From Stachybotrys elegans (lineage: Eukaryota; Ascomycota; Sordariomycetes; Hypocreales; Stachybotryaceae): DNA of 64,000 nucleotides. Below are positions 1,326-61,701 of the stretch, piece after piece (the first letter of the stretch is position 1; each line of letters begins with the position of its first letter). Location of the stretch: NCBI GenBank assembly GCA_020746835.1, contig JAGPNK010000012.1, forward strand, positions 930,001 to 994,000, in the 5' to 3' direction. Below the pieces are notes generated by a model that searched no databases, was not told the origin of the DNA, and was given only the letters and a program-made list of their open reading frames with translations. Position numbers and translations under genes: made by a program.

Positions 1326-2003
1326 TTACGAAGAAACCCTTTCATCTGCCTTTGCATGGAAGTTATACGTAACGCGATCATTGCGGCCAGTCACCTGAAG
1401 CCCCCCAGTGCATATGTTCTGGTTTCCTTTCCCAGAAAACGATAGCATGGTGCCATTAGCCTTGTTCACGCAATATATGGTAGGTTGAGGCGCATCCTCC
1501 AGAGACGCAGGCACATCATCCAGCTCCTCAATAGCAGATTTCAGAACGGTGATGCGCCCCTCTTCCACCACCGGCTCAATAGCCATAACCAAAACTTGTC
1601 CAAGCAATTCGCGCATAACCTCCTCGATCATATCACCACCGTTTGCCTGCACCGCTTGCTGGTACTTCTTCATCTTCCACTGGGGGCTCTGCTCTCCCGC
1701 AAACGCATCAACGAGGTCTTCCAGATCCCGGATCAATTTGCAACTCTGACTACAGGCCTCTTTAATGTCGGTATATATGTCGGGTAGGCCTTCAGGGGGC
1801 CCTCCCGTGCCTTGAACAAAAGTCTCAATGCACGAGATGGTGTCATGGACGAGGTCGAGATGCCTTGCGACGACGACAAAGGCCGGAGGGAGGCTCGAAG
1901 CATCGGGAATTGATGCGCAGTTTTTGATGATTCTGGGTAGAACTAGTGAAACATCGGAGAGGGCTCTTACAGCCTGGGAGCGAGTGACTTGAGTGTCAGG
2001 CAT
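1326..2003 (-). CDS. SesA-type effector with C-terminal amyloid-like motif (paralog 1)
   Basis: A small intronless gene of 225 codons. The start ATG at 2003 was chosen because a TATA box for this strand (TATATAAA, 2096-2089) lies 86 nt upstream; the in-frame ATG at 2075 would sit almost on the transcription start. The N-terminal two thirds resemble SesA, the helical domain found at the N-terminus of fungal STAND/NACHT proteins. It aligns by eye with the divergent neighbour at 2485-3117 (both have a SLPPAF/GLPPSF stretch followed by a helix ending DT). The last 50 residues change character: they are Gly/Asn rich, with GKGNQN, then a Gln seven residues later, then RNDRVTYNF. The nearby NLR carries the same spacing at its N-terminus, ending RSDRRHFTF. 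By family knowledge such motifs form amyloid folds that pass activation from an NLR to a membrane-active effector. That role is inferred. Confidence 0.75.
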   Translation of the reverse strand: MPDTQVTRSQAVRALSDVSLVLPRIIKNCASIPDASSLPPAFVVVARHLDLVHDTISCIETFVQGTGGPPEGLPDIYTDIKEACSQSCKLIRDLEDLVDAFAGEQSPQWKMKKYQQAVQANGGDMIEEVMRELLGQVLVMAIEPVVEEGRITVLKSAIEELDDVPASLEDAPQPTIYCVNKANGTMLSFSGKGNQNICTGGLQVTGRNDRVTYNFHAKADERVSS

Positions 2004-2484
2004 GGTGAGCAGAAGGCGAACGACCCATTTGCGTGTAACAGAAGCCAGGAAAGATACCGAGAGGGGGTGACACATATAGGGCTCTCTGTTTATATAAGGC
2101 GGACACCCCCGCACGTGGCTCTGCGTCTGACAACCTGGGTTCCGGAGCGCAATATTCAGACAAGGCTGTCTCTTACTACTGACAGTCAATACCCTCTTTA
2201 TGATTAGGAAGGTATCATTGCATTGTGGCTGACTTGCACAACACCAGCTGCATGCTTATCATTACGAATCCTAGCCGTGAGTCTCCACAAATACCGTAGT
2301 AATACTACTGATTGGTATAAGCTCGCTGACTGCATATGCGCGTTGACCTAGGTGTGGTTTGCCCAGGCAACTAGGCTCTGTCAGCCCAACGTAACAGCAC
2401 CTGCGTCGAGTGAGGGAAATTCCTAATTTTAACCTGGAAAAGGCAGCAACCTTTTGTCGGTCTTCTTTTGTCACCGGCTTTATC
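2004..2484. promoter_or_regulatory. Shared bidirectional promoter of two SesA-type genes
   Basis: A 481-bp spacer separates the start codons of two divergent SesA-type genes. TATATAAA at 2096-2089 fits the minus-strand gene. A weaker TATA-like GGTATAAG at about 2314-2321 could serve the plus-strand gene 165 nt away. The layout would allow co-expression of both effectors; that is inference. Confidence 0.55.
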
Positions 2485-3117
2485 ATGTCAGGGGTTGAGC
2501 TTGTCGGGCTGATCTCGGGTATCATCACGCTGATCGAGGCCTCTATCAAGATTTACAAAATTGCCGATAACTCTTCTGGTCTACCTCCCTCCTTCCACGA
2601 TGTAGCATCTCGCCTCCCGCTCATTCAGGACACATTAACCCTGGCAAGCCATGGTATCAGCACAGACTCAGCATCCAGTCCGTCTAGCGATGCACTCAAG
2701 AAGGTCCTTCTGGCATGTGCAGAGCGAGCCGCCGCTCTGCACGAAACTTTCCAGGTTGCAGTTCCTCGAGCAGGCACTACCTTGTCGGGAAGATATCTTT
2801 CCGCACTAAAGACGGTCCCCAAGGCTGGCAAGGTCGAGGAACTGATGACTGGCATCACCCGCGACCTTCAGGTCCTGACAGCAAACCGCGCAGTGCAAGC
2901 TCCCACGAGGGCAGAAATAACTGAGCTAATTCGCGAGCTCCAAGCGATGACTCTTGCACAGAAGGGCTTTCCCGGGCCTTCAGTGGTCTTGCGCAATCTG
3001 GGATCAGGATCTCAATATCACTATGGCGGAGTTGGTAACCAGAACTTAGCAAGCGACGGAGCCACCCAGATCAATGGTGATATCCATGGCGGAACATTTA
3101 ACATTATTCAAAAATGA
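2485..3117 (+). CDS. SesA-type effector with C-terminal amyloid-like motif (paralog 2)
   Basis: An intronless gene of 210 codons. The start at ATG 2485 is preferred over the upstream frame opening because the protein then begins MSGVELVGLISG, the usual hydrophobic first helix of SesA domains. Residues 1 to about 150 form a predicted all-helical domain (ISGIITLIEASIKIYK; GLPPSFHDVASRLPLIQDTL). The last 43 residues are a Gly/Asn/Gln-rich tail with GVGNQNLASDGATQING followed by GGTFNIIQ at the very end. The same G-x-G-[ND]-Q-x8-Q spacing occurs in the first 35 residues of the NLR whose 3' end lies only 102 bp away. Placement of the motif at the extreme C-terminus of the effector and the extreme N-terminus of the receptor is the hallmark of known fungal amyloid signalling pairs. 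Whether it belongs to the sigma, PP or another motif class I cannot decide. Confidence 0.8.
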   Translation: MSGVELVGLISGIITLIEASIKIYKIADNSSGLPPSFHDVASRLPLIQDTLTLASHGISTDSASSPSSDALKKVLLACAERAAALHETFQVAVPRAGTTLSGRYLSALKTVPKAGKVEELMTGITRDLQVLTANRAVQAPTRAEITELIRELQAMTLAQKGFPGPSVVLRNLGSGSQYHYGGVGNQNLASDGATQINGDIHGGTFNIIQK

Positions 3118-3219
3118 GTGCATATAATAGCTAGAAGCACGGAAAATGGTCCCTATGAACTACCGTACTGTGTTTATATCCTGGTGGGAATCTTAGCAAC
3201 AAGTATGGTCCTTCGTATC

Positions 3220-6200
3220 CTAGCGGTAGTTATAGCTCCGCCGTGATGCTTTCTTTTTTAAAAGAGCTCGAATCCGATCACCTTCATCGTCCATTCTCAC
3301 AAAATTGATAGCCGACAAGCCGTCTCTGTTCTTCATTCTCACATTAGCACCGTAATCCAGCAGTGTCTGAACAAAATCCAACTTCCCGAACTGCACCGCA
3401 AGCATCAAAGGCGTTTTGTCCTCATTCTCCATAGCATCTAGATGGACAGCCTTCTGGCGAAGAATACTCAGGGTTTGGACCGTTGACTCGCGGCCAATGA
3501 CGGCGTGATGAACTGCCGTATAGCCTTGGTCATCAGCCAAGTCGAGGTTTTCCGTACTCTGGAGAAGATTAAAGAGTCCTGCGTCAAAGCCCATCGAAGC
3601 GGCATAATGAAGTGGTGTTACCCCAGATAAATTCTTAGAGTCACAAGAAGCCCGCCACTCCAACAATATTTGCATCATAGGAACGCTGCGATTCAGCGTT
3701 GCGAGCGCAAGAGCAGTGTGTCCGTGCATATCCTTCACATCTATGCATTTCTGTCTTGCGGCTTGCGGTGCCAGCAGCTCGAGCGTCTCCACGTCGTTTC
3801 TGAGCACGGCGAGGTGTATTGGTGTATGTCCATTGTTATCCTTGGTGTCAGTCCTGACATTCCGATCCAGCAAAAAGCGGACAAACGCTCTGTGCCCTGC
3901 CTGGGGAGTGATGCGGTGCAGCAAAGTCATACCATTGGCGTCGACAAAGTGTGGGTCGGCACCGTATTCGCATAGCAGCCACGCCAAAGATGCGTCACTG
4001 TTTTGCATGGTTAAGGAGAGTGCTTCTTCCGCACATGCGGCAACATTTGCCTGGTTCGTTATCAATAGCCAAACGACACCTCGATGCTGGTTTTGCACCG
4101 CATGGAGCAAGGCAGGCCAGCGGTTCCCGTCATATGCGTCGAGGAGGGCCCCATGCTTCACCAAGTGCCAGACTAGACTTTCATCGCCATCCTTGACAGC
4201 TTGTGTGAGAGGAGTCCAACCGTCAGCGTTTGTCTCGTTCACATCCGCCCCATGTTGAATGAGAAGCTGGATCATCCTTGGGTCCTTGTAGTAAAACGCC
4301 CAGCGAAGGGGTGATTTCTTTTCTTTGGGGTCTCGTAGGTTGATGTTGGCTGGATTTGGCCCCCTTGTCAATAGTGTCTCCGCCAATTCGCACTTTCGTA
4401 TCTTTACAGCATGGATCAGTGGCAGCCAGCCGTCCCGGTCCCGGGATGGCTGATTGAGATCGACGCCACGTTGTAGAAGGATGTTGACGAGTGTCTCGAA
4501 ATGCCGCTTCATAACCTGCACCAAGGGCTTGGATTCATTGGCGCGGGATGTCTCGAGTATTTCGTGGCTGTGGTTCATCACTTCTCTCAGTGCCGTGAAG
4601 CCTGAAAATATCTCGGCATTGATATCCGAATGTTTTTCCAGCATTAGCTCAGCAAGGGCCGTTGGGCCAGATCTGATAGCGGTGGACAAGGGACTCGGTT
4701 TGCTGTAGCTATGTAGATCAAGCTGCGCACCAGCATCGATCAGAACCTCCGCGACGCGTACACCATTCTCAGCGGAGTCAATGATAGCTTTATGAAGAGG
4801 TGTGTCATGACGCTTATCCCTTGCATTAGGACTTGCTCCATTTCTCAACAGCAGTTCGATTAGATGGATTCTGCCTAGGCGGACTGCCCAATGAAGAGCT
4901 GTTTGGCCATCCGAACAACGCTCGTTGATGTTGGCTCCGTCTTGCAGAAGTTTCATCATCCACGGCTTCTTGTTGAGATAAGTCGCTGCATGAAGTCCTG
5001 TGATTCCCACCCATTCGAATTGATGTGGGTTCGGTAGGAATCGGAACCCAAGCTCTAGTTTTGCTGAGTTCTCTAGGAGCTGGTAAACCAATGTATCATT
5101 AAAATCCCCTCCCCTTTGGTGGTGGTCATTCAAGTGAGACGTCCAGTGACTTGCGGCGTAGGAGAATAAATGCCTTTGGGTATTATTCTCAAGGTTGCAA
5201 TCCAGCAAGAACGACACGCAAACCCTGGCCATCGACATGTCTGCAGCCTCGTGAATGATGTCATGGGCCCGTAGATGATGTTGCACGGATTCATGTACCA
5301 GGCGTATCGTGAGCGTTTCCGGATTGATGACAATGAGATCCTCGCATGCCGAGAGAATCACCTGCTTTGAGGGCCTGTGGTCTTCGTATCGATTGTTACC
5401 ACACTGGGCCACAGCAAAGCTTTCCTGTACCTGCATGAGGCTAAGGTCGACCTTGGCGTGGACCACCCAGGTGAGGACATGTTTGGCCAAGACAAAGTCA
5501 GGTTTGCCGTCTTTCTTCAAAATCCTGGCCACGGCATTCTCAAACTCACTTCCGGGGTCAACCGGAAGGCTCAGAAGTGCATCCTTAATTTCAGCAATGC
5601 TGCTTTTCTTGCAGATGTTATCCATGTACATCCGAGCCAGGAGAAACCTATATTCCAGTCAGGCGTCGTAGCCACGAGCGGATTGAACGAGACACTTACA
5701 TTGAATTTTCGCAGGCTGACTTTGTCACTTGCTCTATTACTTGCTTTTGGTAATTCACCTCGGAAAGTATTTGGTATAGCTTTGTATCGCCTTCAATGCG
5801 CCATTCGACATAGGACTGTACGTCTTGTTCACGCGGTTTGACTCTTATCTGTAGACAACCTTGAAGTCGCTGAGTTGCTGAGCTAGATCTGGAAGTAAAT
5901 AAGATCTTGATATTCGGAGGCATGGACTTCAAAGTGCTGAGGATACTCTGCTGCTGCCGGTCGCTGTTGTTCGGAAAGTGATCCAACGCATCAAATATGA
6001 CATAGACCGTATTGAAAATGGATGCTTGAACCTTGAACAACTCATAGTATGCCGAGGGGTGAAAGGATGCTGTGCCTTGGATACAATCATGGAATCTGGT
6101 GGCAAGCTCAGGTGAGACGCCGCCGGGACACTCGTGTCGCAAGAGTTGCAATAAGAGTGATGACCAGATACAGACAGAGCTCAAGGCCTGGTCGTCTTCT

Positions 6201-6939
6201 TGGAGATAGAAATAAACGCATGCAGACTCTTTCTGTAGCTTGACCTTCTCTTTGATGAATTGTACGGCCTTGCAACTGCACTTATCAGCCAACCATAAAT
6301 CGTTGCGGGTTAACGGCAAGCATACACAAGCATGGTCTTTCCAGAGCCCACTACCGTGTGGTGGAGAGGACAGTCAGTCATTTACTGCCATAAGTGTATT
6401 CGGAGTGCTTTCCTTACATATTCCGTGCATGGATAGGAGCTGAGAAGAAGCATCTGTGCTTCTCCATAACTCGAACTCCTCAGTCTCTTCTACCCAGAAC
6501 TCGGTCCTAGGCATTAAGCGACTGACAAGTTCCGAGTGGCGAAGCTCTGCATCGAGGATGGGTATATTCGATTGTTTCAGCAGCCATTTAATGATGGCGG
6601 ATCCTTTGGGGACATTCAGTCGACGTGGAAGATGAAATAGCACGTCGTATACGTACGTGATGGTGCACTTAGTTCGTCCTTTTGGTCAATGACGTTTCCG
6701 GTGCCACCGAGAGCTTGCATTAGGGGCAATATCGATGAGATACCCGGGGTGTTAACTGATGTTGACTTGGTTAACCCAAATATCGACGGCGGGCGGGGCA
6801 TCTCACAGGTAAAGTGGCGGCGGTCACTTCGATCATTGTACTGTGTTCCATGGTCATGAACCGAAGCCTGGTCTCCATTGCCAGAAGCAAGGTATATCTT
6901 GCCTCCTTGTTCATTGGTAGCGTTTATCTCGGAACCCAT
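3220..6939 (-). CDS. NLR: amyloid-like N-terminal motif, NACHT ATPase, ankyrin repeats
   Basis: Six exons: 6939-6807, 6755-6657, 6603-6418, 6350-6328, 6268-5700 and 5647-3220, 3438 nt in all (1145 aa, frame kept throughout). The start is ATG 6939 in an ACCATGG context. Residues 1-45 carry a motif with SGNGDQASVHDHGTQYN then RSDRRHFTF, matching the tails of the two neighbouring SesA-type proteins. A NACHT module follows: HGILGSGKTML (Walker A) near residue 145, VYVIFDALDHF (Walker B-like) and ILFTSRSS. A winged-helix-like segment after MFLLARMY leads to about 15 ankyrin repeats from roughly residue 545 to the C-terminus (for example DGQTALHWAVRLGRIHLIELLL). By family knowledge this is a STAND receptor: ankyrin repeats sense, NACHT oligomerises and the N-terminal motif templates an effector. 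The Walker A sequence sits on a 23-nt exon. I saw no disabling change. Confidence 0.9.
6900..6939 (-). other. NLR N-terminal amyloid-like signalling motif
   Basis: This interval encodes part of the motif at the start of the NLR; the full motif runs on to about 6812. The key pattern is G-x-G-[N/D]-Q, eight residues, then Q. It is followed by R-[S/N]-D-R-x2-[F/Y]-[T/N]-F, shared with SesA paralog 1. The partner motifs are at about 3000-3114 (plus) and 1345-1460 (minus). Confidence 0.65.
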
Positions 6940-7325
6940 GGTCGCATTTGTCAAGGCTTGACTCCAAGATGGAATGGCAGAACAGAAAACAGCAGTGTTT
7001 GTGAAAGAACCTCGTAAGACAGACAGATAACGGAACAGCTGGAAAATGGATGAGCTTTCTACCCCACTCGGCCCGTCTGTTTGAAAAGGCTGCAGCCTGA
7101 TCCTTCTGACATCTCATGGTTGCATCCAACGTGGGCCAGTGCGGCTGATGATACTCCGACAAATATTGACCCTGTAAGCCACACTGATCTGACCACCCCT
7201 TTACTTCGCGCGGCAGCCTGATGGACATTGGCACTCCCCCATCACTGCTGGATCTTCCTAGTCTTTAGACCATTTAACCCCTCACCATCAAGCCCGATTA
7301 TCACTCAATATTCCAAGCCATAACG
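6940..7325. promoter_or_regulatory. Divergent promoter of the NLR and the coiled-coil gene
   Basis: A 386-bp spacer between two divergent start codons. No strong TATA box was seen on either strand. The last 70 bp before 7326 are pyrimidine-rich with several CTCA/CAAT-like runs, as is common in fungal core promoters. Confidence 0.45.
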
Positions 7326-9959
7326 ATGCCGTCTGTGATTCCTGGACCAGTTCAACGCAAGGCCTCAGCTGTGACGACAGGATCGAATGCTCGGCAGCAT
7401 GTTACCTCCCGCAGATCAATTGGACACATCAACTCTTCGCGATCCGGTCCGTCCAGCCTTCCCGTGGTTGAGGAGGAGGGGGCTCGTGACAAGAAGAAGA
7501 AGAAGAATAAGGACCAGCCTAATTATGCCATGAGTGTTTCCTCAAACCTTTCTGCGGAAAGCATCGATACTATTGATGACGAGGCGCCTTCTCCAGCCCC
7601 TCAAACCTCGCAACCTCATCGAAGTCGTCATTCGAGGCGTCACGAACCGGCTCGACACACAGTTCCTGTCAGCATCCACATCGAGCCGCAAAGTCGTTAC
7701 GTAGAGCATCCCACGAGCCTATATGGTCAGCCCCTCGTCCAAGCTCAGGGCCCAACCATCTTTGACGCTGGGCCTATGCCAACGACGTCTCGACCCCAAA
7801 GCTATCCGAGACCCACGCATCCGTCATATCCCAGCTATAATTTCAACTACCCTGAGACCCTCGAGACCAGCATACCGCAACACATGTCAAACAGGGCACC
7901 GAAAGCGCCTCCTCAAAAACCAGCCCGTTCTTCTGCCAGATCTGGCCGACAGCCAAAGCGGCCGCCCGTCAACTCGCACGAATATACCAACCCCAATGAC
8001 ACCATCTACGTGGAGGATGAAGATGATGAGCTTCCCTCAGATGATGGGGGGTCATTGTCTAGAGATGAAATGTCGCACAGGGGTTATGGACATCGCGGAG
8101 GCTACGGACATCACGGAGGCTACGGATATCATACCCCATATACGGGTTATGGGAACTATGCACACAATGGCCCCTATATGGGCTATGGAAACCAGACGAT
8201 GCCTTATTATGGAGGCTACGGGGCATATGCCCCATACCCGTATGGGCCTCAGTACCTCCACGTCCCTGCTCCACCTCCCCCGCCAACTGAACCACCAGAA
8301 CCGTCGTCATCCGAGCCTCCTGCCCCAGACCCAGATAAGGTTCGACTGGCGGCTGAGTTAACAGCTTTAAAGTTGGAGCAAGATAAAGTCATTGCCCAAG
8401 AGGAAAAGAGGAATGAACTTGAAATATTTCGCAAAGAGGTTGAGCATGAACTAAAAAGAAAGCAAGATGAATTGCACGAGGTGCAAGAAAGAGCACGACG
8501 AGAGATTGCCGAAGCAGTGGCGGAGGCAAAGAAACAGGGCATGGAGGAAGTCATTGCCAAACAGAAAGCGGATGCAGAAAGATCACAGTTGTTAAAAGAC
8601 CATGAGGAGCGCATTGAAAAACAGGTGCGGGCGCAGTTGCAAGCGGAGCAGTTAGCTAAGGAGGCTGCAAAAGAGGCCGGTGAAATGCGTCGAAGAGAGG
8701 CTCACAACATCACCAAAGAGATGCTGCTGGAGAGTTTTGATGAAATACTATCAGCAGCCAAGGAAAAACTGCTACTCGACATGGGAATAGATCTCAAATC
8801 CCCCACGATGCTACAAACTCCATCAGGCAAAATAGACATCGACAGATATCGCATCCGAACACATGATAAGAGATGGCATCGCAAGGAAGAAGAAGATTCA
8901 GTCCTGGATACTGCCAGCCAGACAAATGCATGGCAAAGAGTGATGTCGACTCGCTCTCAGAACAGCGACGCTGGGTCACGGAGGACCTCTTCCGTCCAGA
9001 GTGTCTCATTGGGACGCTCTAAAGAATCACCTGTGGCCTTTGGCGTTGAGAGTACACAGGGTTTTGACCCGTCTCATCCACCTCATGCACCAGAGATTCC
9101 GAAATATGACTCTGAATTGGAAACACAAAGTGACCATTCTCTTCGCGACAAACATCCGAGTGATTCAAGCGATGAGTCTACCTATGGCGTTTCTGGAAAG
9201 AGGCGAGACTCCACCCGTCAGCGGGGTGCCAACAGATTTTCTCAGATAGAACTCAACCATTTAGCTGGTGCCATTGCTGATAAGCTTGCCAGGCTTCAAC
9301 GGTATCCCCCGGTGAGGGTGGGGGGACCGCTTCGCAAGCCGGCAAACAGGAGACGACTGTCACCGAGGAAGACCATGTCGGACTCTGAAGATGAAACAGC
9401 TCCAGACCATCCATTCAAGCCTAACTCTCAAGCATATGTCTCTCCTGAACCCCAGGAAGAAGGCCTGCAGCCAACGCCTTACCTTACAGTCGATGTAGGT
9501 GCAGAAGAGATGCAAAACATCGCTTACACGGTATCCAAGAACGGCATCGTTGTATGTACGGAAGTCATATCCAATGAGACCAAGGGCGAGATGGAGGAAT
9601 CCGAGTCAAACATAGGCACCGTTGGGGAACAAGGGACAGAGAGTACTCTTGGCCAAAGCACAAATTTTGACGAATTCCAGACAGTCGTCAACTCCACAGC
9701 TTTGGATGATAAAGGTGCAGGGGTGGAAGTCAAGATAGTGCGTTCCTTGGACGCCAACCAAGACGCCAACGATGAGGGAGCGCAACCGCAGATCAAGCCG
9801 CCTGCGCTTCGAATCAGACAGCCGGCTTCCGTTCAGTCAAACAGCTGCAGCTCATGCTCAGGCCACGCGAGAAGACAGATGAGGAACTCGCATCCTCAGG
9901 TTTCGGTTCCAGTGCAACAGCCGGTGCGCAAAAGCAGGCGACAGACGCTGACCAAATGA
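7326..9959 (+). CDS. Large disordered coiled-coil protein with Gly/Tyr/His repeats, function unknown
   Basis: A single 877-codon exon from ATG 7326 to TGA. I do not recognise the family. The first 240 residues are low-complexity and basic or acidic (a KKKKKNKDQ stretch near residue 58, DEDDELPSDDG near 230). Residues about 250-305 are a Gly/Tyr/His-rich tract with repeated HRGGYGH, HHGGYGY and MGYGN units, followed by a Pro-rich linker (PPPPPTEPPEP). Residues about 338-470 are a long charged coiled coil (ELTALKLEQDK through EAAKEAGEM), ending in a helical segment (NITKEMLLESFDEIL). The rest is Ser/Thr/Glu-rich and probably unstructured. There is no signal peptide or membrane span. The aromatic low-complexity tract joined to a coiled coil suggests a scaffold or condensate-type protein, which is inference. 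It shares a promoter region with the NLR. Confidence 0.75.
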   Translation: MPSVIPGPVQRKASAVTTGSNARQHVTSRRSIGHINSSRSGPSSLPVVEEEGARDKKKKKNKDQPNYAMSVSSNLSAESIDTIDDEAPSPAPQTSQPHRSRHSRRHEPARHTVPVSIHIEPQSRYVEHPTSLYGQPLVQAQGPTIFDAGPMPTTSRPQSYPRPTHPSYPSYNFNYPETLETSIPQHMSNRAPKAPPQKPARSSARSGRQPKRPPVNSHEYTNPNDTIYVEDEDDELPSDDGGSLSRDEMSHRGYGHRGGYGHHGGYGYHTPYTGYGNYAHNGPYMGYGNQTMPYYGGYGAYAPYPYGPQYLHVPAPPPPPTEPPEPSSSEPPAPDPDKVRLAAELTALKLEQDKVIAQEEKRNELEIFRKEVEHELKRKQDELHEVQERARREIAEAVAEAKKQGMEEVIAKQKADAERSQLLKDHEERIEKQVRAQLQAEQLAKEAAKEAGEMRRREAHNITKEMLLESFDEILSAAKEKLLLDMGIDLKSPTMLQTPSGKIDIDRYRIRTHDKRWHRKEEEDSVLDTASQTNAWQRVMSTRSQNSDAGSRRTSSVQSVSLGRSKESPVAFGVESTQGFDPSHPPHAPEIPKYDSELETQSDHSLRDKHPSDSSDESTYGVSGKRRDSTRQRGANRFSQIELNHLAGAIADKLARLQRYPPVRVGGPLRKPANRRRLSPRKTMSDSEDETAPDHPFKPNSQAYVSPEPQEEGLQPTPYLTVDVGAEEMQNIAYTVSKNGIVVCTEVISNETKGEMEESESNIGTVGEQGTESTLGQSTNFDEFQTVVNSTALDDKGAGVEVKIVRSLDANQDANDEGAQPQIKPPALRIRQPASVQSNSCSSCSGHARRQMRNSHPQVSVPVQQPVRKSRRQTLTK
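8080..8245 (+). repeat. Imperfect tandem repeats encoding a GYG/GGYG tract
   Basis: Degenerate repeats of about 15-18 nt with cores GGAGGCTACGG and GGCTATGG/GGTTATGG lie inside the coiled-coil gene. They encode HRGGYGH, HHGGYGY, YTGYGNY and YMGYGN units. The frame is kept, so the repeat is translated. Confidence 0.75.
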
Positions 9960-10710
9960 AGTCGCTTCTGTTGTAGTAGGCCCTGCTGTCTGTATTGTGA
10001 CGGATTTAGCAAAACGGAGTTATTGTTTTCCTAGTATTACTGAAGCGCTGAGACGGGGTATTAGCTACACTAAATGAATGTCCTCTTCATGATGCAAGGC
10101 TGAAAGATATACACGACTGAGTGCTGCAAGAAATCATAATGCTCCTCGCCATCCTACAGGATGCATGGCGACGACTTCAGAAAAACAGTTATTCTAGGCA
10201 TGAGGCCTTGGCTAAGACTTACAGATAGATATGTTTATTTGTAAGGTGCGGTACACGCATCTTAGAATACCTTCTCTCAAGTTCGCCAGGAGTACTTTGA
10301 CACACCCTTGTATCAGGCGCTTGGTATTCTTCGCCGTATGCCTCTTTCAGTTCCCTCAGGAAATCCGGTCCGATGTCCTTAGACAGTCAGGAACCTTCCT
10401 GGCCCATCGCTCCAGAAGCTTTGTGTCTGTCAAGGATGACAATTCTCCTGCGTCGACCTATGACTGAACCGCACAGCGATTCAGTGCAGCAAGGCAGACT
10501 AAGCCATTTGAAGAATAGAAACAAATATTTATAAAGGGGTTTTAATGGGACACGGACGGAATACGAGGCATGGCCAAGGACAGCCCCCTGTCACTAGCAA
10601 GGCGGGTCAGAAGTGTGTGTTTTGACGATCATCTTTTCAAGAGAAATGCCTTCTTCCACTGCCATCCGTCTGCTCGTGGTGGTGCTTCATCCACGCTTAC
10701 GGGGTATGCG
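9960..10710. promoter_or_regulatory. Spacer with TATA box of the first subtilase
   Basis: No supported gene; an open frame at 10231-10467 has no recognisable features. TTTATAAAGG at 10528-10537 is a good TATA box. It lies only about 35 nt before the in-frame ATG at 10570 but about 175 nt before ATG 10711, which argues for the later start of the protease. Confidence 0.55.
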
Positions 10711-13529
10711 ATGCGTCTTTTCAGCTATCTGGCCGCACTTACCTGCTGGTTGAACGTTGCCAGCCCTCAATCCGTGCCGCCAAGTGCATATTACGTGCAG
10801 CTATCCAGGGATTCAACCGAGTCCAGCCCCGATACCCTGGTCGAGAGAGCAGCCGGGCACTCAATCGCGCTCCATCTCAGACACACCTTCGATGATGCTG
10901 CATTTCACGGCGTTTCGGTTGTGCTCGACGACGTCGATGATGTCGACAAGCTCCGAACCCTTCCCGGCGTTGAGAATGTCTTTCCCGTGGAGCAGCTCAT
11001 GGTGAACCGCCCAGCGACGACAGAGACAACGACCCAAGAAGCGCCGTCCGTACGCAAGCGTGCTGCTCCTTTGTCTCACGCCACACCTTCTCGCGAAGAG
11101 ATTGACTGGAACACCCCGCACTCTGTGACAGGCGTCGACCGACTTCACGCACAAGGAATCTTTGGCGAGGGCGTGCGCGTCGCCATACTCGACACTGGCA
11201 TCGACTATCTCCATCCAGCTCTGGGCGGATGCTTCGGCCAAGGCTGCAAGGTCGAGTACGGCTACGACTTTGTGGGCGACGAGTATGGAACCATCGATTT
11301 TGTCCTGCGGCCCAAGCCCGACCCTCGCCCACTGTGTTATGATGCGTACCACGGCACGCACGTCGCCGGCACCGTGGGAATGGAGGTGCCGTCCAACGCA
11401 TCCGCCTTTCCGGGCTTGATTGGCGTGGCGCCGCGGGCCAAGCTGGCCATGTATCGTGTCATCGCTTGCATCAATGCCGTCGTGGGTGAGGACACGATTC
11501 TTGCTGCGCTGCAGAGAGCCGCCGACGACGGCGCCCATGTCATTAGCATGTCCTTTGAAGTCACTGCGTGGACACTGGGGAGATACAGTCCCTTGCCAGC
11601 GGCCGTGTCTGCCTTGAAAGCCCAGGGCATAGCCGTCGTTGCCTCTGCTGGCAACTATGGTGCTCGCGGCCTGTTCAACATTGTCCTGCCGGGAGGGTCA
11701 CCGGACGCGATGGCTGTTGCATCCGTGGAGAATGCCAATTTCCCAACATATGCAATAAGCGACTCCAACGGCAAAGACTTCAGATATGGGTCTCTGTATT
11801 CATTCCCCTCCGGAGAGTATCCAGTTGCCTGGGCTGGTAGCGAAGGAGCCCGTTCTGGGTGCTCGGCCTCCGACTATCCTCCTGCGAGCAGCCTCTCAGA
11901 TCCCACCTCCGACTACATTGTCGCTGTCAAGCAAGGGCTAGACTGTGACATTAACCGGATACAGACTCTGGCTCTGGCTGCCAACTACACCAAGATCATG
12001 ACATACATGGATCCTGCCGACGTCGGATCTTCCGCGAAAGACTATAGCGCCCCCTCGCCCGTGCTAGACAGGCAAGGATTTCAGGTTTCCTTTGCCTCCA
12101 CGCACGACAGCACACTCTCCGAGGCAGCCAAGAGCTCCGGACTTTATAAGCTAATTGTCCACTCAGAGTCGCCACAGTTGGTGAGACAGCCAGGAGGCTC
12201 TACTCCCAACAACTTCTCAAGCGTCGGTATGCTTAGCACCCTCTTACTCAGTAACTTCGGGACCAGCATTGACCAGTTCTAGGTCCCAACACAGATTTCA
12301 GCTTCAAGCCTGACATCGCTGCCCCTGGAGGCTCCATCATCTCAACGTTGCCACTGTTGCAGAACAGTACCGGATTCGGCATCCTCAGTGGAACGTCAAT
12401 GGCGACACCTTACGTCGCAGGAGTATACGCCCTCATCAAATCTCAGCATCCACGGCTATCAGTTGATGAGATATTCGACCTCATCAAGTCCACTGCCAAG
12501 CCAGTCAACATGACTAACAGCCCCAAACTGTCTCCGGTTGCTCAACAGGGCGGTGGATTGATCCAAGCTTATGATGCCATTCATTCAACGTCGCTTATCC
12601 AACCAAGTGCTTTCAGTCTAGTCAACTCGTGGGACGCAAGCCTATCCATTGACAATCCCACTGATACCGACGTCAGATACACTCTTGCAGCGCGACCAGC
12701 GAGTGGTGTATCTGCATTTGCCCAAGGCTCCGCGCGGACTACTATGTCCGGCTTTCTACCAAGTGATCTTGCAGCCGATGTCGTCTTCCCCGGTGGAGAT
12801 GAGATCACCATACCTGCTGGAGATAACAAGAATATTTCCTTCTCTATGGTTCCCCCGCCAGATATCGAGCCCAGCTTAGTGCCTCTACTTTCCGGCTTCA
12901 TTGAGATTAGCTCTTCTCGTGGCGAGCATTTCACTATCCCCTACATGAGGCCGTCCTACAGCTATAGCACTGCTCCTGTTATTGGGCTAAGGAACCTGAC
13001 AGAAGAACAAAAGGCAAATGCGACGGCACCTGGCCGAGATCCCCTGTCTGCTCCGCAGGTGTTTGCCAATACTGACAAGGCCGACATTGGAGAGCGCCGT
13101 GCTTTCGCGCTCCAGTGGCCAGATGTCATCATTGCTCAGTTCACTTCGCTCCAGCCGGTTCGGCAATATCGGATGGATCTTGTCCGCGCGAGCACCAACT
13201 TTACACCCACATGGTACGGATACGATCCGAAAATAGAGCAGGGCAACCTCACCGAGACAACCATGCCCGATAATGGAACGGTCGGGGGCGTATCAATTGT
13301 CGGATCTGTCGAGATTCAGAACGACTTGGCTCCCCAGACAAACTACCAATTCACGTGGCAGTTCTCCCCGCTTGATGTGACAGGCTCTAGGGGGATAGAC
13401 TTGAGGAAAGGGTCTTATCGTCTCTTGCTGAGGTGGCTGAAGTACTACCGAGAAGAGGACGACGTGGATGAGTGGGAGAGCTGGATGAGTGGGGTGATAG
13501 ATATTACACAAGACAAGATCCGGGGCTGA
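10711..13529 (+). CDS. Secreted subtilisin-like serine protease (S8), minor-extracellular-protease type
   Basis: Two exons, 10711-12226 and 12283-13529, separated by a 56-nt intron with TTGAC before CTAG; 920 aa with frame kept. The start at 10711 gives a clean signal peptide (MRLFSYLAALTCWLNVASPQ). Next come an inhibitor-I9-like prosegment (about residues 25-110) and the S8 catalytic domain. The triad residues are Asp161 in ILDTGIDYLHP, His214 in HGTHVAG and Ser544 in GTSMATP; the oxyanion Asn is in ASAGNYG. The long insert between His and Ser looks like a protease-associated (PA) domain, as in Vpr/C5a-peptidase-like subtilases. The C-terminal 300 residues are beta-rich and Fn3-like with several N-glycosylation sites. 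It should degrade proteins outside the cell. A related protease lies on the other strand at 17948-20683. Confidence 0.93.
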
Positions 13530-17947: not shown

Positions 17948-20683
17948 CTATTCTTCATACCGAATCCTGAATGGCATCGTCTCAACGACCTGCCAATCCT
18001 CATCCTTGGACTCGTCTCCAAAAATCCGCAGCGCCTTGACAACAATCTTATATCGTCCCACTGGCGCATACTGGCCGTCGCTCAACCGGCCGTACCAGAC
18101 CCAGGTCCAGAATCCGCGAGAGGCCCATTGGACAGGGAAGCCAGCCAACTGGCCAATTGACTCGCCAGTCTCATTGCTTTGAGTGGTGTTTGAGAGACGC
18201 ACAAGTTCACCGGTCATCTTAGCGGTACCCCAGTAGAGGTTGGCGTACAGCTGCGGCAGGGGCTTGTCCCACGCATCCACGATTATTCCATGCGGGGGGA
18301 GTGTGTAGATCCGGTTGGGACAGGCCGATTCGCCGGTTGATACTGTGAGGTACGTGTTATCCTCGTCAATTGCGACTGCGTTGTGCAGCGATCCCACAAG
18401 TCCATGGTACGACAAAGACAGAGACGTGCCGTCGGAGCCGTTGAGCGCAATGTAGCCGGACCACAAGGCATACCGGTTTGCATCGAGACCCTCTGGGGGA
18501 CTGGCAGTTACCTCGACGGTCGCAGATTTTCCGGCCGGAATGGTCAGCTCGGACGCACTAAAGACGACATCTCCATGCTCTGGCTGGGACTGTGTCGGGT
18601 AGCGGCTAGGCAATCTCCTGTTCTCCGGCAAGGCGTAGAAAGAATGCGTAGGAACGTGGGAAACACGGTACGTAACCTGCTTGCTCCCGTGGTTGGTGAG
18701 GGTAAAGCTCCGCGACTCGACAAAGTTGTCCGTGTCGTTGAAGGACAGGTTGGACGGTTCGAGCGACATGGTAGTGCCGTACGCAGCATCGTACACCTGT
18801 ATGAGACCAGCGCCCTGCTGCAGCGGAGGGGCCAAGAAGTCCTGGAAAACCGCCTCGCCGTTGCGCACCTGCTGGAACCGCTGCGCCTTGGCCGTCGACG
18901 TGAGCAGGTTCTCAATGACGGCAGGCTCGCGGGTGCCCCGGGCCTCGGCGACGAGCGCAAAGGCGGCGGCGGCAAACGGGCACGCCATCGAGGTGCCCGA
19001 GAAGACGGCATAGTTGCCCAGCGCCCTCGGGTACGTGGAGAGAATGTTGCCGCCGGGCGCCCCGATCTTGGGCGACGCCTCCATCTCGTACGACGGGCCC
19101 CAGCTCGTCAGGAAACTCGCCGCGCCCGCCGTGGGGCCGCCATCCTGGGTGTAGACAATGGGCGTTGCTTGGTCCCTGCTGATGAGCTCGACGGTGATGT
19201 TGGCGCCGCCCGCCAGCGCCTCTACCCACGCTTCTCCAATCTCCTTGGGGACCATGGCGGCAGCTTCAACGTCGTTCATGTTGGCTACGTAGATGCAGCT
19301 TGTATCGAGGCCGGTTTCATACACGATGATAGAGCGCGCCCCCTTGGCAATCAGGTTCTCGGCCTGATCAAACGGACCACACGTGGCGCGGCGCACCAGG
19401 ACGTGATACTCGCTCAGGTCGGGGGTATCGTCAGGAAGAGGGTAGCAGGCGTCATCATCGCTGGTCGTGTTGAAGCCCACGGCCCAGAGAGGACGCGCGA
19501 CGCCGTCAAAGTTGTCGCCGCCGCACGCGTCGTAAGGGAATGCGGTGCGCGGGCCGTCGTCAATCGTCTCGAACGACTCGAGCAGCGACAGGGGCAGCTT
19601 CGTGTTCTGGAACGAGGCCACGGACGTGACGCCCTTTCCGATAGCGGCCGATTGGGAGTGGAAGAGACCCTCGGAGCCATCGTTGCCGGCAGAGAGGGTG
19701 CAGGGCACGCCCTTTTCGACGATGCGGCTGGCTGCAATAGCCCAAGGCGCAGATGACCACCCAAAGTTGGCGCCAATGGATGCAGTAATGATGTCGGCGC
19801 CCTCTTCGTAGGCTCTGTTGAAGGCAGCGACGAGAACATCTGTGCTGACGCCGCCATCACATCCGAAGACGCGGTAAGCCGCGATGCGAACACCGGGAGC
19901 GGCGCCTCGGAAGCCCAGCTCATTATCTTCGGCTGCAATGATACCGGCAACATGAGTTCCATGGCCAAAGCAGTTGTCCATGGGGTCGGCATCGGGCACA
20001 GGCTGGTTGGTGCCATTGTAGTTGTCTCCCACCAGATCATATCCCGACTCAATGAGACAGCCCTCTCCAAAGCAGCCTCCCAGCAGGGGATGCTCATAGT
20101 CGATCTAACGTCCCGGTTAATGCTAACGGAGCGAAACAGAGGGGAAGGGAGTATTTACGCCAGTGTCTACGATTGCAATCTTGATGCCTTTTCCTGTTAT
20201 GCCCTTTGCGTGCATCTTGTCGACTTGGGTCATGACATGGGTCGAGTAGGGCACTTCCGAGCTGTTACCACCGCCTCTTCTGAGCGACTCGCTGTCGGCG
20301 CCAGGGATGATGTGGACTTCAGGGTTGGGCGGTGGCACGACCGTGACGGGCCAAATGCTCTTGACGCCGCTTAGCGAAGCAAGGGAAGCCGCTGCCTCGT
20401 CGGCATTGTCCGTGTTGTGCAGCTGAATCGACATGCCCTTGAAGAGCTCAAAGTCGAGATCCAGCCGCGTGTCAAAGCCGGGAGCCTGCCGCCGAAACTT
20501 GGTAGCATCCTGCAATCATTGTTAGCACCATGTATTGGAGCGCCCTCGGCAACATACATGTCCATCCGCGAATTCCACAATGAAGGCTCCTGGGACAGTC
20601 AGTGGCTCAGCAATGTCGCGGTCGATTGCGAGCGCCAGGGGCACAAGGGCGAAAAGCCCCAATAATTTGACTGCGTTCATCAT
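17948..20683 (-). CDS. Second secreted subtilisin-like serine protease (S8) with PA-type insert
   Basis: Three exons, 20683-20558, 20509-20159 and 20104-17948, total 2634 nt (877 aa, frame kept). A TATA box for this strand (TATAAA, 20770-20765) lies about 80 nt before the ATG. The N-terminus MMNAVKLLGLFALVPLALA is a signal peptide, followed by an I9-like prosegment (GAFIVEFADGH; MSIQLHNTDNADEAAASL). Catalytic residues are Asp in IVDTGIDYEHP, His in HGTHVAG and Ser in GTSMACP; the oxyanion Asn is in LSAGNDG. An insert between His and Ser (AKGARSIIVYETG) matches a PA domain. The C-terminal third is beta-rich (Fn3-like; WTWVWYGRLSDGQY). It is paralogous to the protease at 10711-13529, with the same architecture but clear divergence. 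The second exon junction falls right after the catalytic Asp-Thr-Gly. Confidence 0.93.
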
Positions 20684-24545: not shown

Positions 24546-25851
24546 AGTTAACTCGGTTCCCAGTAAGCCGGTGCATACAGTGTGCAGTATAAGAGTGAGG
24601 GGTAAGAGCGGTTTATTCCTCAATTATGTCAGATGTCCGGTTTGTGGCTCGGCCAATAACATCAAGTGTTAATAATTAACTTCGGCTACATGTTTTGGCA
24701 ATATCGCTACTAGAATTGGTACAAATAAACGCTTTACATCCCATCACAGGAGCCGGCCCTATGAGGTTCCTGAGTCTGGTGAGGCAATTCGTATTTATAC
24801 GACGCCGATCAAACCAGTGATGGTGCCTTCGTTACCTCGCTGCCAAGTGTGAATCCCAGCCCGTTGTATGATATGATAGAAGCGCAGAAACGCATGGAAA
24901 CATGTATACAATCATGCCAATTCGTACAAAGATTACTGTCTGCAGCAACCCCCTCATTGTTCTCTGGCTCCGGCCAACGGGTGATGTCATATGACGATCC
25001 CTTCAGTGTTTGACTCTGTTCTTTGGTCCCGCGGGTAGCAAGGCCACTATTGTTCGCATATACTATTGTTCTTTTTTCCCGGGCTTCGGCTGCGATTCCT
25101 CGTCAGAATCTCTGTGCGCCGGGAGCGCACAAAAGTCATCCTGTTTCCAGACCGTCAGCAACACCGTCATCGGACCGCTTGGAAGGACTCACCTTGAAGA
25201 TAACATCGTCAGGGACGTTGACGGGGGCGGCAGCCGCAGTGTGCGAATCGTTGTTCATTTTGTGTGGTATTAATTTCAGGGGATGTAACAGAGTGTTGGA
25301 TACGGATGAAGAATTCTTCTCTCTCGAGCCGGGGGCTCAAGGGCTTTATGTAGCCGTGGGCTGGAGGCAGATCAAGCTTTTCTCTGTGGGCAGCCTGGAG
25401 CGATGGCAACCTTGCGTGGTTGCAGTCAGTCGAAGCTTTCCATTAGCATCGTGGCGCCCTCCATCTGGGCACAGGCTTCTGCAGCGTTGGCAACCTTATT
25501 CGGTCCGTCAGCGTTCGTCCGATGAGTCAACCGAAGCTTCCCAGCCGGGCACCGTCAGTCAGAGCCTTCCATCTGACCCCGCCCCAACCCTCCTCGCAGC
25601 CACCTGTGGCTCGGCCACTCGGCCGCTCGGCCAGTCGGCTACCCTGTACGGGCAGCCTGACGATGGCTTCGTTGTTGTTCTTCTCTACTGTTTACGACTG
25701 CATTGATTGCTGGGGCACTAGGCACCACCTCTACTGTTTATTTGCTCTCTACTGCTTACACCCCATACTGCACACTCTTTTCCTCATCATACTATTGTTC
25801 TTTTTTCCACACTGCACGCACCTACTCCATCACAAAGATTACCGTCAAGTG
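24546..25851. other. Gene-free region with short repeats
   Basis: Open frames here lack any family features and are not called. A 19-nt stretch, TACTATTGTTCTTTTTTCC, occurs twice (about 25060-25078 and 25790-25808). CTCTACTGTTTA or a one-base variant occurs three times between about 25680 and 25760. A run of CTCGGCC units lies near 25611-25630. The pattern suggests decayed repetitive DNA, but no element ends or transposase were recognised. Confidence 0.4.
25060..25808 (+). repeat. Pair of 19-nt direct repeats about 730 bp apart
   Basis: Identical copies of TACTATTGTTCTTTTTTCC flank about 710 bp of sequence with further short repeats. They could be ends of a small decayed element or chance in pyrimidine-rich DNA. 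No coding region is associated. Confidence 0.35.
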
Positions 25852-26780
25852 TTATTCAACCCGGGACCTCTTTCGTGGCAACTGTGCGCCACCTTTCTTG
25901 CAGGTCAAGCACCGGCACTGAAGGGCTTCAATTGGTACGCCATCGCCACAGCTTCCACAGCGTCCCAGATATGGCTCCTCCAGGAAGGACTCCAGAAGTT
26001 CCTTTGCAAACGCCGGGTTCTCGCTGCAAATAAGGTCGAAAAGCTCCTTGGTCTCCTTCGAATGCAAATACGAAGGCATGGTTTGCCGTGCATACGCCAC
26101 AGCACGCTTCCGGAGCTCTTGACGGTGAACGGGTGTCGAGTAGACGGCGGATAATGAAGTAAGGAAGCACTCCATCCTTACTCCGCCCAGTGCCATGTTA
26201 TAGTTCCTGGCCGCGACGAGCTGCAGCCCGCTGATGAGGTACTCATCGGCCAGCGCAAACATGGTTGCATGGATGATGAGCTGCTCATTGGGGTCCTTTT
26301 CTGTAGCAGCGCATTCTTCAGGGATTCCCTTGTTGTAGTTGCCGGTATAGAGGTAGTCGACCATGCGATGTACCATGGCAGGCTCATAGTCATCAATCGT
26401 GAACTGTGCGTCGGCATCCTCCATTGGGCTCAGCGATCGGCTCCATAGGAGTCAGGACCCGGCAGTCATCAACGTACCTTGAAGAGGCTCACGCATGCCG
26501 CCCCGAAAGCCTCTGACTGCGCACAGGCGACCACCTTGTGCACAGGAATCGTCTCTCCACGGCATACGAACGCATAGTCGATGAACTTGGCGTCTTTGCG
26601 AGCTCTACGGAGCGGACGGTTAATTGGGCTTGCGGGGAAGATCTTCAGCCAGCTTACTTGATCAAGTCGGAATTGAGGCAAGGCAATTTGTGCGAAGCCA
26701 TAGCGAGGCTTAGCGAGGCTGTGACTCTTGGTATCCTCGGTACCGCTCGTGCTCGTTGGTGATTGCTGGAGGATCGAAAT
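25852..26780 (-). CDS. BTB/POZ domain protein with C-terminal cysteine cluster
   Basis: Two exons are clear: one ending at 26478 and a second at 26418-25852, with a 59-nt intron between. The first exon carries the BTB start (AKFIDYAFVCRGETIPVHKVV and AFGAACVSLFK). The second continues with FTIDDYEPAMVHRMVDYLYTG, the classic C-terminal half of fungal BTB domains. A helical region follows (FALADEYLISGLQLVAARNY). The last 35 residues hold CGSCGDG and CRCLTCKKGG, five cysteines in a CxxC..CxCxxC layout that could bind zinc. The true start is unresolved: a TTAACC..CCGTAG signal just before the DAKFID segment suggests another upstream intron, so the 5' limit is approximate. BTB proteins mediate protein-protein contacts, often as cullin-3 adaptors; that role is not shown here. 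Confidence 0.75.
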
Positions 26781-60215: not shown

Positions 60216-61701
60216 ATGACCTCCGAATATGATGTGATAGTCATTGGCGCAGGTATCGCTGGCTGTGCAGCTGCAAAGGCCTTTGCACACAAGGGGTACC
60301 AAGTGCTTGTGATTGAGCGGAGTCTTACTGAACCAGATCGCATCGTCGGCGAGCTCCTACAACCTGGCGGTGTCGCCGCATTGCAGCGCCTTGGACTCGG
60401 CGAGTGTCTCGAGGGTATTGACGCATCCCCGGTCAAAGGATATCACATATACTGGCACGGTGAAGAAGCGCCTTTCTGGTTCTGTGCCGCCCCCAACGAA
60501 CCTCAGCCAACGGGGAGGACCTTTCATCATGGGCGGTTTGTGTCTAAACTCAGGCATAAAATCGCAGCAGAGGGAAACATTACCCTAATGGAGGGTACTG
60601 TCAGAGAGATATTACGTGACGATGTTTCTAGACATGTTGTCGGGGTTCAAGTTACCTTGAAAGAAGACATGTTGCTCCACGTAAGTCCACAGCAGCATCT
60701 CGCGAGTCCCTACTTACCACATGCAGTTGAGGCTTCACGCTCATCTGACCATTCTTGCCGATGGACCGTCTTCCAACTTTCGCTCACAGTTTATCGACCA
60801 ACAACCTTCCGCCAAGTCAAGGTTCTGGGGATTGGAGCTCATCGATGCCAATCTTCCTCATTACGGCTATGCATATGGCGTCATCGGGTCTGGACCACCC
60901 CTTCTGATGTACCAGATCAGTGAGAAAGAGACAAGAATTCTCATCGATATATTAGACTCTGACTACAGGCAAATGGGCGATGCTCAGGGTGTCCGAGAGT
61001 ATATCATCTCCAGAGTCCTGCCTACACTACCTCCATCAGTACAGCCCAGTGTTTTGGAAGCAGCGAAATCCGGCCGCTTGAGATGTATGCCTAATTCATG
61101 GCTATCTTCAGCTGCGATCCACACACCGGGAATCGCTATTCTGGGAGATGCGTCTAATATGCGGCATCCTCTCACGGGAGGTGGAATGACGGTCGCCATC
61201 AAAGATGCCATACTTTTGGCCGAGTTGCTCGCACCGAACCGCATCACTTCACTATCTGATAGGAGCCACGTTGCCAAGGCAATCAGAGTCTTCCATTGGC
61301 AGAGGAAATGGCATGCATCTACCATAAATATCTTGGCACAGACCCTTTATCTGTTGTTTGTAGCCGAAGGTGGGTTGATTTATCCATGAAGCAGAAAACA
61401 CACAGCGTTCTAACCGAGTTTCACAGACCCGGGTCTTCAGATTATGCAAGCTGGCTTCGTCAAATACATTCAAAAAGGACCCCGTCATTTTGGAGAGCCA
61501 GTGGGAATTATGGGAGGACTCGTTGAAAATCCCTTGCGACTATTCTATCAGTTTTTCTGCATAGCGTTCTATAGCATCGGGCTGCACGTCCATGGTTCAG
61601 GTGTCTTGGGTCTCCCATTTGCCTTACTTGAATCCTGCAAGGTGTTTTGGAGTGCTGTAGCGATATTGATGCCATGCATTAGAGACGAACTCAAAGGCTG
61701 A
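60216..61701 (+). CDS. Squalene epoxidase-like FAD monooxygenase (ERG1 family)
   Basis: Three exons, 60216-60680, 60727-61369 and 61427-61701, total 1383 nt (460 aa, frame kept). The dinucleotide fold is DVIVIGAGIAGCAAAKAFA. Family motifs follow: RIVGELLQPGGVAALQRLGL, GRTFHHGRFVSKLRHKI, LTILADGPSSNFR (DG motif), GIAILGDASNMRHPLTGGGMTVAIKDA, and a C-terminal hydrophobic membrane region (FYQFFCIAFYSIGLHV). This is the set expected of squalene monooxygenase, which makes 2,3-oxidosqualene in the ER for sterols. The gene sits in an accessory setting rather than among housekeeping genes. It may be an additional copy serving a triterpenoid pathway or inhibitor resistance; that is inference. No N-terminal anchor precedes the FAD domain, unlike many Erg1 proteins. 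Confidence 0.88.

What the first reader, a model, noticed from the sequence alone, without database searches (positions are those of the whole stretch)
1326..6939. Three-gene NLR/effector locus: one NACHT-ankyrin receptor and two SesA proteins share a terminal amyloid-like motif
Seen: G-x-G-[N/D]-Q, seven or eight residues, then Q occurs at the N-terminus of the NLR (SGNGDQASVHDHGTQYN) and at the C-termini of both SesA-type proteins (GVGNQNLASDGATQING; GKGNQNICTGGLQVTG). NLR and paralog 1 also share R-[S/N]-D-R-x2-[F/Y]-[T/N]-F directly after it. Known: in fungal HET-S, sigma and PP systems an NLR templates an amyloid in an effector encoded next door. Inferred: this locus is such a death switch, with one receptor feeding two divergent effectors and a motif variant I cannot place with certainty in a named class.
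Basis: partly seen in the sequence, partly recalled or inferred. Interest (0 to 1): 0.88.

Follow-up and report, generated by a model that had tools for sequence, protein, structure and literature searches.

The report
Fungal receptor with two matching effectors
A fungal immune-type receptor gene sits beside two effector genes that end in the same short sequence tag the receptor begins with, which fits a recently named, still untested way of switching effectors on by spreading an amyloid fold.

Summary
The three genes are real, and the tag lies at the receptor's N-terminus and at both SesA C-termini. A Fusarium receptor's tag searched against the whole 43.4 Mb genome returns only these three places at E<=10, the two SesA tags weakly. 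In relatives the tag is about as conserved as the domains, across variable linkers, and one Fusarium species has receptor and SesA under consecutive locus tags.

It fits the 'GDQN' amyloid signalling motif, named provisionally in 2025 from one Fusarium oxysporum receptor/SesA pair (PMC12261475, passages read). Three Fusarium receptors match the published pattern at 13 of 13 positions, window SesA-2 at 11, the window receptor at 10, SesA-1 at 6.

Pfam's sigma model misses all three window tags but finds sigma elsewhere in this genome. Family profiles still link GDQN to sigma, so I read it as a diverged sigma relative. Two SesA genes at one locus is already reported for sigma loci (PMC3321046).

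SesA-1 is the odd part: no relative found at E<=0.001, a weak tag, and a decayed relative beside a sigma locus in this genome. Amyloid formation and cell death are inferred.

The parts
1326..2003 (-). SesA-1, single-exon effector gene, 225 aa (SesA domain at residues 22-137)
   Evidence: Open frame; PF17107 36.8 bits, cut-off 26.3; only itself found in the protein database at E<=0.001
1359..1466 (-). C-terminal GDQN-like tag of SesA-1, residues 180-215, NKANGTMLSFSGKGNQNICTGGLQVTGRNDRVTYNF
   Evidence: SesA-2-family HMM 0 of 5000 shuffles, receptor-family HMM 1 of 5000; E 0.145 genome-wide with P0020; only 6 of 13 GDQN positions without a gap, 7 of 13 allowing one gap
2004..2484 (.). 481-base intergenic stretch between the two head-to-head SesA genes, possible shared promoter region (inference)
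   Evidence: Gene coordinates
2485..3117 (+). SesA-2, single-exon effector gene, 210 aa (SesA domain at residues 10-131)
   Evidence: PF17107 114.5 bits; 15 relatives at E<=0.001, 8 with an organism name, 7 of these Fusarium
2995..3105 (+). C-terminal GDQN tag of SesA-2, residues 171-207, NLGSGSQYHYGGVGNQNLASDGATQINGDIHGGTFNI
   Evidence: 11 of 13 published GDQN positions; 61% mean identity to 12 of 15 relatives over the tag, 28% over the linker
3220..6939 (-). Receptor: GDQN tag, NACHT, ankyrin repeats, 1148 aa; introns 6806-6756, 6656-6604, 6417-6351, 6325-6276, 5699-5648
   Evidence: Splice model with intact P-loop GSGKT; NACHT, NPHP3_N and Ank; 14 relatives at E<=1e-5, 7 of them with the tag
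6807..6915 (-). N-terminal GDQN tag of the receptor, residues 9-44 in exon 1 (residue 45 crosses intron 1): NEQGGKIYLASGNGDQASVHDHGTQYNDRSDRRHFT(F)
   Evidence: 10 of 13 published GDQN positions; E 1.1e-6 genome-wide with the F. graminearum relative's tag

Best explanation
This is a three-gene receptor/effector signalling locus of the GDQN amyloid-motif type, a diverged relative of the sigma loci of filamentous ascomycetes. The NACHT-ankyrin receptor stays inactive until its ankyrin repeats bind a ligand. It then oligomerises through the NACHT domain and stacks its N-terminal tags into an amyloid-like nucleus. That nucleus templates the same fold in the C-terminal tags of SesA-2 and probably SesA-1, which oligomerises their helical SesA domains; SesA-2, with a hydrophobic first helix, would act on membranes and trigger cell death or a lasting change of growth state. 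Shown here: the genes, domains, shared tag, its conservation, its fit to the published pattern and, by locus tags, the gene pairing in one Fusarium. Inferred from the family: ligand sensing, amyloid templating, membrane action and cell death.
For: Domains. Tag shared by the three proteins, and these are the only three matches at E<=10 in the 43.4 Mb genome to a relative's receptor tag. HMMs from relatives only recover all three tags, beyond shuffles. Receptor-family and SesA-2-family tags match each other by hhalign at 97% probability, 0 of 200 column-shuffled controls. Published GDQN pattern 13/13 in 3 Fusarium receptor relatives, 11/13 in SesA-2, 10/13 in the window receptor. Gene pair kept: receptor relative ACHAPA_008106 and SesA relative ACHAPA_008107 of F. 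lateritium have consecutive locus tags. Tag about as conserved as the domains, linkers not. The same genome has a SesA domain 43% identical to SesA-2 directly upstream of NACHT and WD40 frames on the same strand, the apparent all-in-one alternative.
Against: No biochemical or genetic result. As single sequences the window receptor and SesA-2 are only weakly alike (32 of 2000 shuffles reach the score; receptor/SesA-1 1 of 2000, SesA-1/SesA-2 0 of 2000). The two SesA tags reach only E 0.145 and 0.285 in the genome-wide search, and a query made from SesA tails found only SesA-2. SesA-1 meets only 6 of 13 GDQN positions, no more than the best unrelated place in the window, and its first helix region is less hydrophobic (1.05 against 1.77 on the 19-residue Kyte-Doolittle scale), though the sigma SesA of C10 is lower still (0.92). 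Structure models are poor (mean pLDDT 60). Adjacency outside this genome is seen in one species only, and by locus tags.
Confidence: 0.75

Rival explanations
1. The tag is simply a canonical sigma motif, and the locus is an ordinary sigma/SesA/receptor cluster.
For: hhalign of the SesA-2-family and receptor-family tags against canonical sigma from this genome: 90% probability each, 0 of 200 shuffled controls. Three distant SesA-2 relatives match Pfam NACHT_sigma below its cut-off, E 2.2e-5, 1.6e-4 and 0.0036. Same kind of receptor (NACHT, ankyrin) and a SesA protein as in the founding Nectria locus. Two sesA copies are known at some sigma loci.
Against: NACHT_sigma finds 5 places above cut-off in this genome, none in the window; the three window tags give no Pfam match at E<=10. 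An HMM from 5 canonical sigma sequences of this genome scores the window tags weakly (47 to 107 of 5000 shuffles equal or better) and does not rank them first among window frames; the SesA-2-family HMM in turn does not separate the second C10 sigma protein from its shuffles (141 of 5000). PMC12261475 reports GDQN apart from its sigma profile hits.
Confidence: 0.3
2. SesA-1 is not an executioner but a dampener or decoy: it carries the tag and joins the amyloid, but its diverged SesA domain no longer kills.
For: PF17107 score 36.8 against 114.5 bits, no relatives found at E<=0.001, less hydrophobic N-terminus, and its closest relative in the genome is decayed.
Confidence: 0.3
3. The tags are a low-complexity G/N/Q-rich resemblance without a shared function.
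For: Short segments; the single-sequence receptor/SesA-2 comparison is weak.
Against: Shuffled controls, only three matches genome-wide, conservation above the linkers and the same pairing in F. lateritium.
Confidence: 0.04

Closest known systems
GDQN amyloid signalling motif pair, Fusarium oxysporum Fo5176, KAI8417719 (receptor) / KAI8417720 (SesA) (PMC12261475; passages read)
   Same: Same motif pattern at a receptor N-terminus and a SesA C-terminus; same effector domain
   Different: Window has two SesA genes, a weaker match in the receptor (10/13) and a diverged second effector; I compared with the printed pattern only, not with the F. oxysporum proteins themselves
Sigma locus of Nectria haematococca: HET-eN, SesA, SesB (PMC3321046 passages read; PMC516043 abstract read)
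   Same: NACHT-ankyrin receptor with N-terminal motif and a 5' intron, SesA effector with C-terminal motif, G/Q/N-rich tag built of repeats
   Different: No SesB gene seen next to it; the tag is not recognised by Pfam NACHT_sigma; two SesA genes instead of SesA plus SesB
Canonical sigma locus in the same genome, about G000:C10:451508-457700
   Same: SesA plus NACHT-ankyrin receptor with sigma tags
   Different: Has a NACHT_N-domain effector as well, and sigma tags over the Pfam cut-off
PP locus of Chaetomium globosum (HELLP, SBP, PNT1) (PMC5485727, passages read)
   Same: One receptor, two tagged effectors
   Different: Different motif; effectors of two different domain kinds

Membership tests
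GDQN amyloid signalling motif | Pattern NxxxGxQYxxxGxGDQNxVSxxxxQxN at the receptor N-terminus | tested here: met
   10 of 13 fixed positions in the window receptor, 13 of 13 in 3 of 7 tag-bearing relatives; best unrelated place in the window frames 6
GDQN amyloid signalling motif | Same pattern at the C-terminus of an adjacent SesA protein | tested here: met
   SesA-2 11 of 13. SesA-1 alone would not pass: 6 of 13, 7 of 13 allowing one gap
GDQN amyloid signalling motif | Amyloid formation and cross-seeding | not testable with these tools
   No experiment possible; none reported in the passages of PMC12261475 that I read
Sigma motif | Match to Pfam NACHT_sigma (PF17106) | tested here: not met
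   No match at E<=10 for the three tags nor in the window in the genome search; 3 distant SesA-2 relatives match below cut-off
Sigma motif | Three repeats of GxGxQFNxx / GGTQNINT units | tested here: inconclusive
   0.43 to 0.53 of fixed positions, 2 to 6 of 2000 shuffles equal or better; profile-profile 90%
PP motif | Match to PF17046 (named Ses_B, but PP according to PMC12261475) or to the pseudopalindrome consensus | tested here: not met
   No PF17046 match at E<=1 in the genome; PP consensus not above shuffles for the receptor and SesA-2, 82 of 2000 for SesA-1
PUASM motif | FxGxGxQxxGxGxF with a PNP_UDP effector | tested here: not met
   Effectors are SesA, not PNP_UDP; receptor and SesA-2 no better than shuffles. 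Against this, SesA-1 has 5 of 7 positions (0 of 2000 shuffles)
HRAM / HET-s motif | Match to HET-s profiles on a HeLo effector | tested here: inconclusive
   No Pfam family at all listed for any tag, but hmmscan filters drop weak matches; effectors match SesA
Fungal NLR | NACHT with intact P-loop plus superstructure-forming repeats | tested here: met
   NACHT 31 bits, NPHP3_N 83.1 bits, Ank_2 240.7 bits; GSGKT after splicing
SesA effector | PF17107 over the curated cut-off | tested here: met
   36.8 and 114.5 bits, cut-off 26.3
HeLo / MLKL four-helix executioner superfamily | Four-helix bundle similar to MLKL or HET-S | tested here: inconclusive

The most novel reading that the evidence does not exclude
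The receptor's tag is bivalent. Its core (G-x-G-D-Q ... Q-x-N) is shared with both effectors, but its tail (NDRSDRRHFTF; NDRSDRR is kept in three Fusarium receptors) resembles SesA-1's tail (GRNDRVTYNF) more than SesA-2's. The receptor may thus have been kept compatible with two effector lineages, with SesA-1 a second, fast-evolving output that was once also paired with a sigma receptor (the decayed copy on C10), making GDQN and sigma one continuum that exchanges effectors.
Probability: 0.25. Interest if true: 0.6.

Novelty: new member of a known kind. Interest (0 to 1): 0.45.

Why it matters
GDQN was named from one gene pair. This locus and its relatives give the motif a family: besides the window, 12 SesA proteins with 9 to 12 of 13 pattern positions (7 Fusarium, 1 Magnaporthiopsis, 4 without an organism name) and 7 receptors with 8 to 13 of 13 (4 Fusarium, 3 Xylariales). 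They also give a profile link to sigma, which makes cross-seeding between the two directly testable, with both kinds present in one genome. The two diverged SesA outputs under one receptor allow a test of whether amyloid signalling lets a receptor drive a killer and a modulator together.

Tried and rejected
Canonical sigma membership by Pfam was tried and failed. PP and PUASM were tried by consensus and PP by profile: rejected, apart from a 5-of-7 PUASM resemblance of SesA-1 through the shared GxGxQ core. Structure: both AlphaFold models are low confidence; the plain Foldseek search was run for SesA-2 only and had no match at E<=0.001; the re-alignments list many unrelated helical bundles, and for SesA-2 no MLKL or HET-S chain is among the 50 rows shown; by sequence the SesA-2 family has no solved relative (best E 0.014). 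RIP as cause of the decayed SesA-1 copy: the two indices do not look RIP-like (thresholds recalled). No sigma- or GDQN-like tag from the 10 kb before the window (L034) is among the hits printed. Of the 26 long frames (230 aa or more) listed, three are this locus, one was scanned and 20, with no further receptor or SesA gene; two (25447-26151, 60685-61386) and all shorter frames were not scanned. Rows dropped before counts: SesA-2 HMM without the window protein and without P0014 to P0016 (12 rows), receptor HMM from 7 of 14 relatives; identity averages use P0002 to P0013 (12 of 15 relatives) and the same 7 receptors, because the other 7 have other N-termini. The receptor search scored only the 7,984 candidates sharing most words. 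The motif alignment used a raised gap penalty.
Full report
What is there. The window is at positions 930001-994000 of contig C4 of an unnamed 43.4 Mb genome; its genes are those of a filamentous fungus. At its left end lie three genes: SesA-1 (minus, 1326-2003), SesA-2 (plus, 2485-3117) and a receptor (minus, 3220-6939). The receptor needs short introns to be read as one protein. Of 36 splice combinations tried, the 6 that stay open to the end all use introns 6656-6604 and 6325-6276 (6417-6351 was in all 36); the first and last introns have alternatives, and I chose 6806-6756 and 5699-5648, giving 1148 residues. Two introns flank the P-loop and restore GSGKT. Pfam finds SesA in both small proteins (36.8 and 114.5 bits, cut-off 26.3) and NACHT, NPHP3_N and ankyrin repeats in the receptor.

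The shared tag. Because the pattern was written after seeing them, I used relatives as outside judges. SesA-2 has 15 relatives at E<=0.001 in a database of 5.8 billion proteins; 8 carry an organism name, 7 of them Fusarium. SesA-1 found only itself. The receptor's first 380 residues found 14 relatives at E<=1e-5 among the 7,984 candidates scored, of which the best 7 keep the N-terminal tag. HMMs built from relatives with the window left out were run on 1,352 window frames plus frames of seven other stretches of this genome, 2,615 in all. The SesA-2 model (12 rows) ranks SesA-2 (3e-20), SesA-1 (0.0016), two sigma tags of C10 (0.014, 0.017) and the window receptor (0.024) first; the next frame has 0.68. 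The receptor model (7 rows) ranks the receptor (1e-7), SesA-2 (6e-5), three sigma tags of C10 (0.0016 to 0.06) and SesA-1 (0.061) first; the next has 0.28. With these models shuffled versions of the three tags reach the real score in 0 or 1 of 5,000 cases. A Fusarium graminearum receptor's tag searched against the entire genome returned three matches at E<=10, the three window tags, at 1.1e-6, 0.145 and 0.285. The reverse query, a composite of SesA tails, returned only SesA-2. As single sequences, SesA-1 and SesA-2 beat all 2,000 shuffles, receptor and SesA-1 all but 1, receptor and SesA-2 all but 32.

Conservation. Over 12 of its 15 relatives SesA-2 averages 55% identity in the SesA domain, 28% in the linker and 61% in the tag. 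The receptor over 7 relatives averages 37% in the tag, 25% in the following linker and 39% in NACHT. In Fusarium lateritium the receptor relative is ACHAPA_008106 and the SesA relative ACHAPA_008107, consecutive locus tags.

Which motif. Pfam NACHT_sigma finds five places above cut-off in this genome, on C10 and C16, but nothing in the window, and the tags alone give no Pfam match at E<=10. A 2025 paper reports from F. oxysporum Fo5176 a receptor/SesA pair with the pattern NxxxGxQYxxxGxGDQNxVSxxxxQxN, provisionally named GDQN (PMC12261475, passages read). Three Fusarium receptor relatives match all 13 fixed positions, window SesA-2 11, the window receptor 10, SesA-1 6 (7 allowing one gap). The best unrelated place among about 54,000 positions of the window frames also has 6, so SesA-1 rests on the HMM evidence and not on this pattern. 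A search of 5.39 million open papers for GDQN together with amyloid lists two, this paper and an unrelated one on a peptide probe (listing only).

Relation to sigma. Sigma was defined as three repeats of GxGxQFNxx and GGTQNINT units (PMC3321046, passages read). The tag of SesA-2 also reads as three Q-centred units spaced by nine residues; in the receptor and SesA-1 the first unit has lost its Q. SesA-2 aligns with the sigma SesA of C10 without gaps in the core, in an alignment made with a raised gap penalty. Profile comparison of the two GDQN families with five canonical sigma sequences gives 90% probability each, with 0 of 200 column-shuffled controls reaching it; receptor family against SesA-2 family gives 97%. 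P0014, P0015 and P0016, distant SesA-2 relatives, match NACHT_sigma below its cut-off over the aligned tag (the database's precomputed list gives PF17106 for P0016). Against this, a direct HMM of the five canonical sequences scores the window tags only weakly (47 to 107 of 5,000 shuffles equal or better), and the SesA-2 model does not separate the second C10 sigma protein from its shuffles (141 of 5,000). I conclude that GDQN is probably a diverged sigma relative, not ordinary sigma.

SesA-1. It is diverged in its domain, its tag is the weakest, and its N-terminus is less hydrophobic than that of SesA-2, though not lower than the C10 sigma SesA. Its closest relative in the genome is a decayed copy on C10 at 458641-459057, 47% identical over residues 82-220, with two stops in the tag region and a weak N-terminal trace in another frame. 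It lies head to head with the sigma receptor there. I infer that SesA-1-type effectors have been attached to both kinds of locus. The receptor's tail NDRSDRR resembles SesA-1's GRNDR more than SesA-2's tail, and three Fusarium receptors keep it, which is why I raise the bivalent reading.

Mechanism. By analogy with the published systems (PMC5485727, passages read), ligand binding would cluster receptor tags, which template effector tags and so oligomerise SesA domains. A 2025 review names SesA with HeLo, HeLo-like and Goodbye as domains that are also built directly into fungal receptors (PMC12881547, passages read). This genome seems to show both solutions: SesA as separate tagged proteins, and a SesA frame directly upstream of NACHT and WD40 frames on C32, apparently one gene. 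My structure models are too poor to settle the fold, although the SesA-1 model lists MLKL and HET-S domains among its matches. Amyloid formation, ligand and cell death remain inferred.

Verdict. The motif is not new to print, the two-SesA arrangement is known for sigma loci, and the locus is a new member of a known kind with an unusual second effector.

Noticed in passing
G000:C10:458641-459057 (L029 741-1157, L036): Decayed relative of SesA-1 (47% identity over residues 82-220) with stops in its tag region, head to head with a sigma receptor.
   Followed up: partly
L028 (G000:C10:448001-457900): Canonical sigma locus: SesA-sigma, NACHT_N-sigma and a NACHT-ankyrin receptor with a sigma-coding upstream exon.
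   Followed up: partly
L030 (G000:C16:317001-326900): Second sigma locus: NACHT/NPHP3_N-ankyrin receptor and a NACHT_N-sigma protein; by eye the ankyrin array holds near-identical long repeats.
   Followed up: no
L032 4906-8396 (G000:C53): SesA domain followed by GGKGNQAINKGGEQHNIFG, then a GTAAGA donor-like site, a frame with an NB-ARC-like P-loop by eye (5824-6270, not scanned) and a TPR frame: possibly one receptor with an internal sigma-like tag.
   Followed up: no
L031 1442-5103 (G000:C32): SesA, NACHT and WD40 frames in tandem on one strand, apparently a single gene; its SesA domain is 43% identical to SesA-2 and I see no tag.
   Followed up: partly
window 10546-13526 and 17951-20104: Subtilase (S8) frames with Fn3-like domains on either side of an arrestin-like frame and a Zn2Cys6 transcription factor frame.
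   Followed up: no
window 7278-9959: Long frame, by eye low-complexity and coiled-coil-like with a YG-rich stretch; no Pfam match at E<=1.
   Followed up: no
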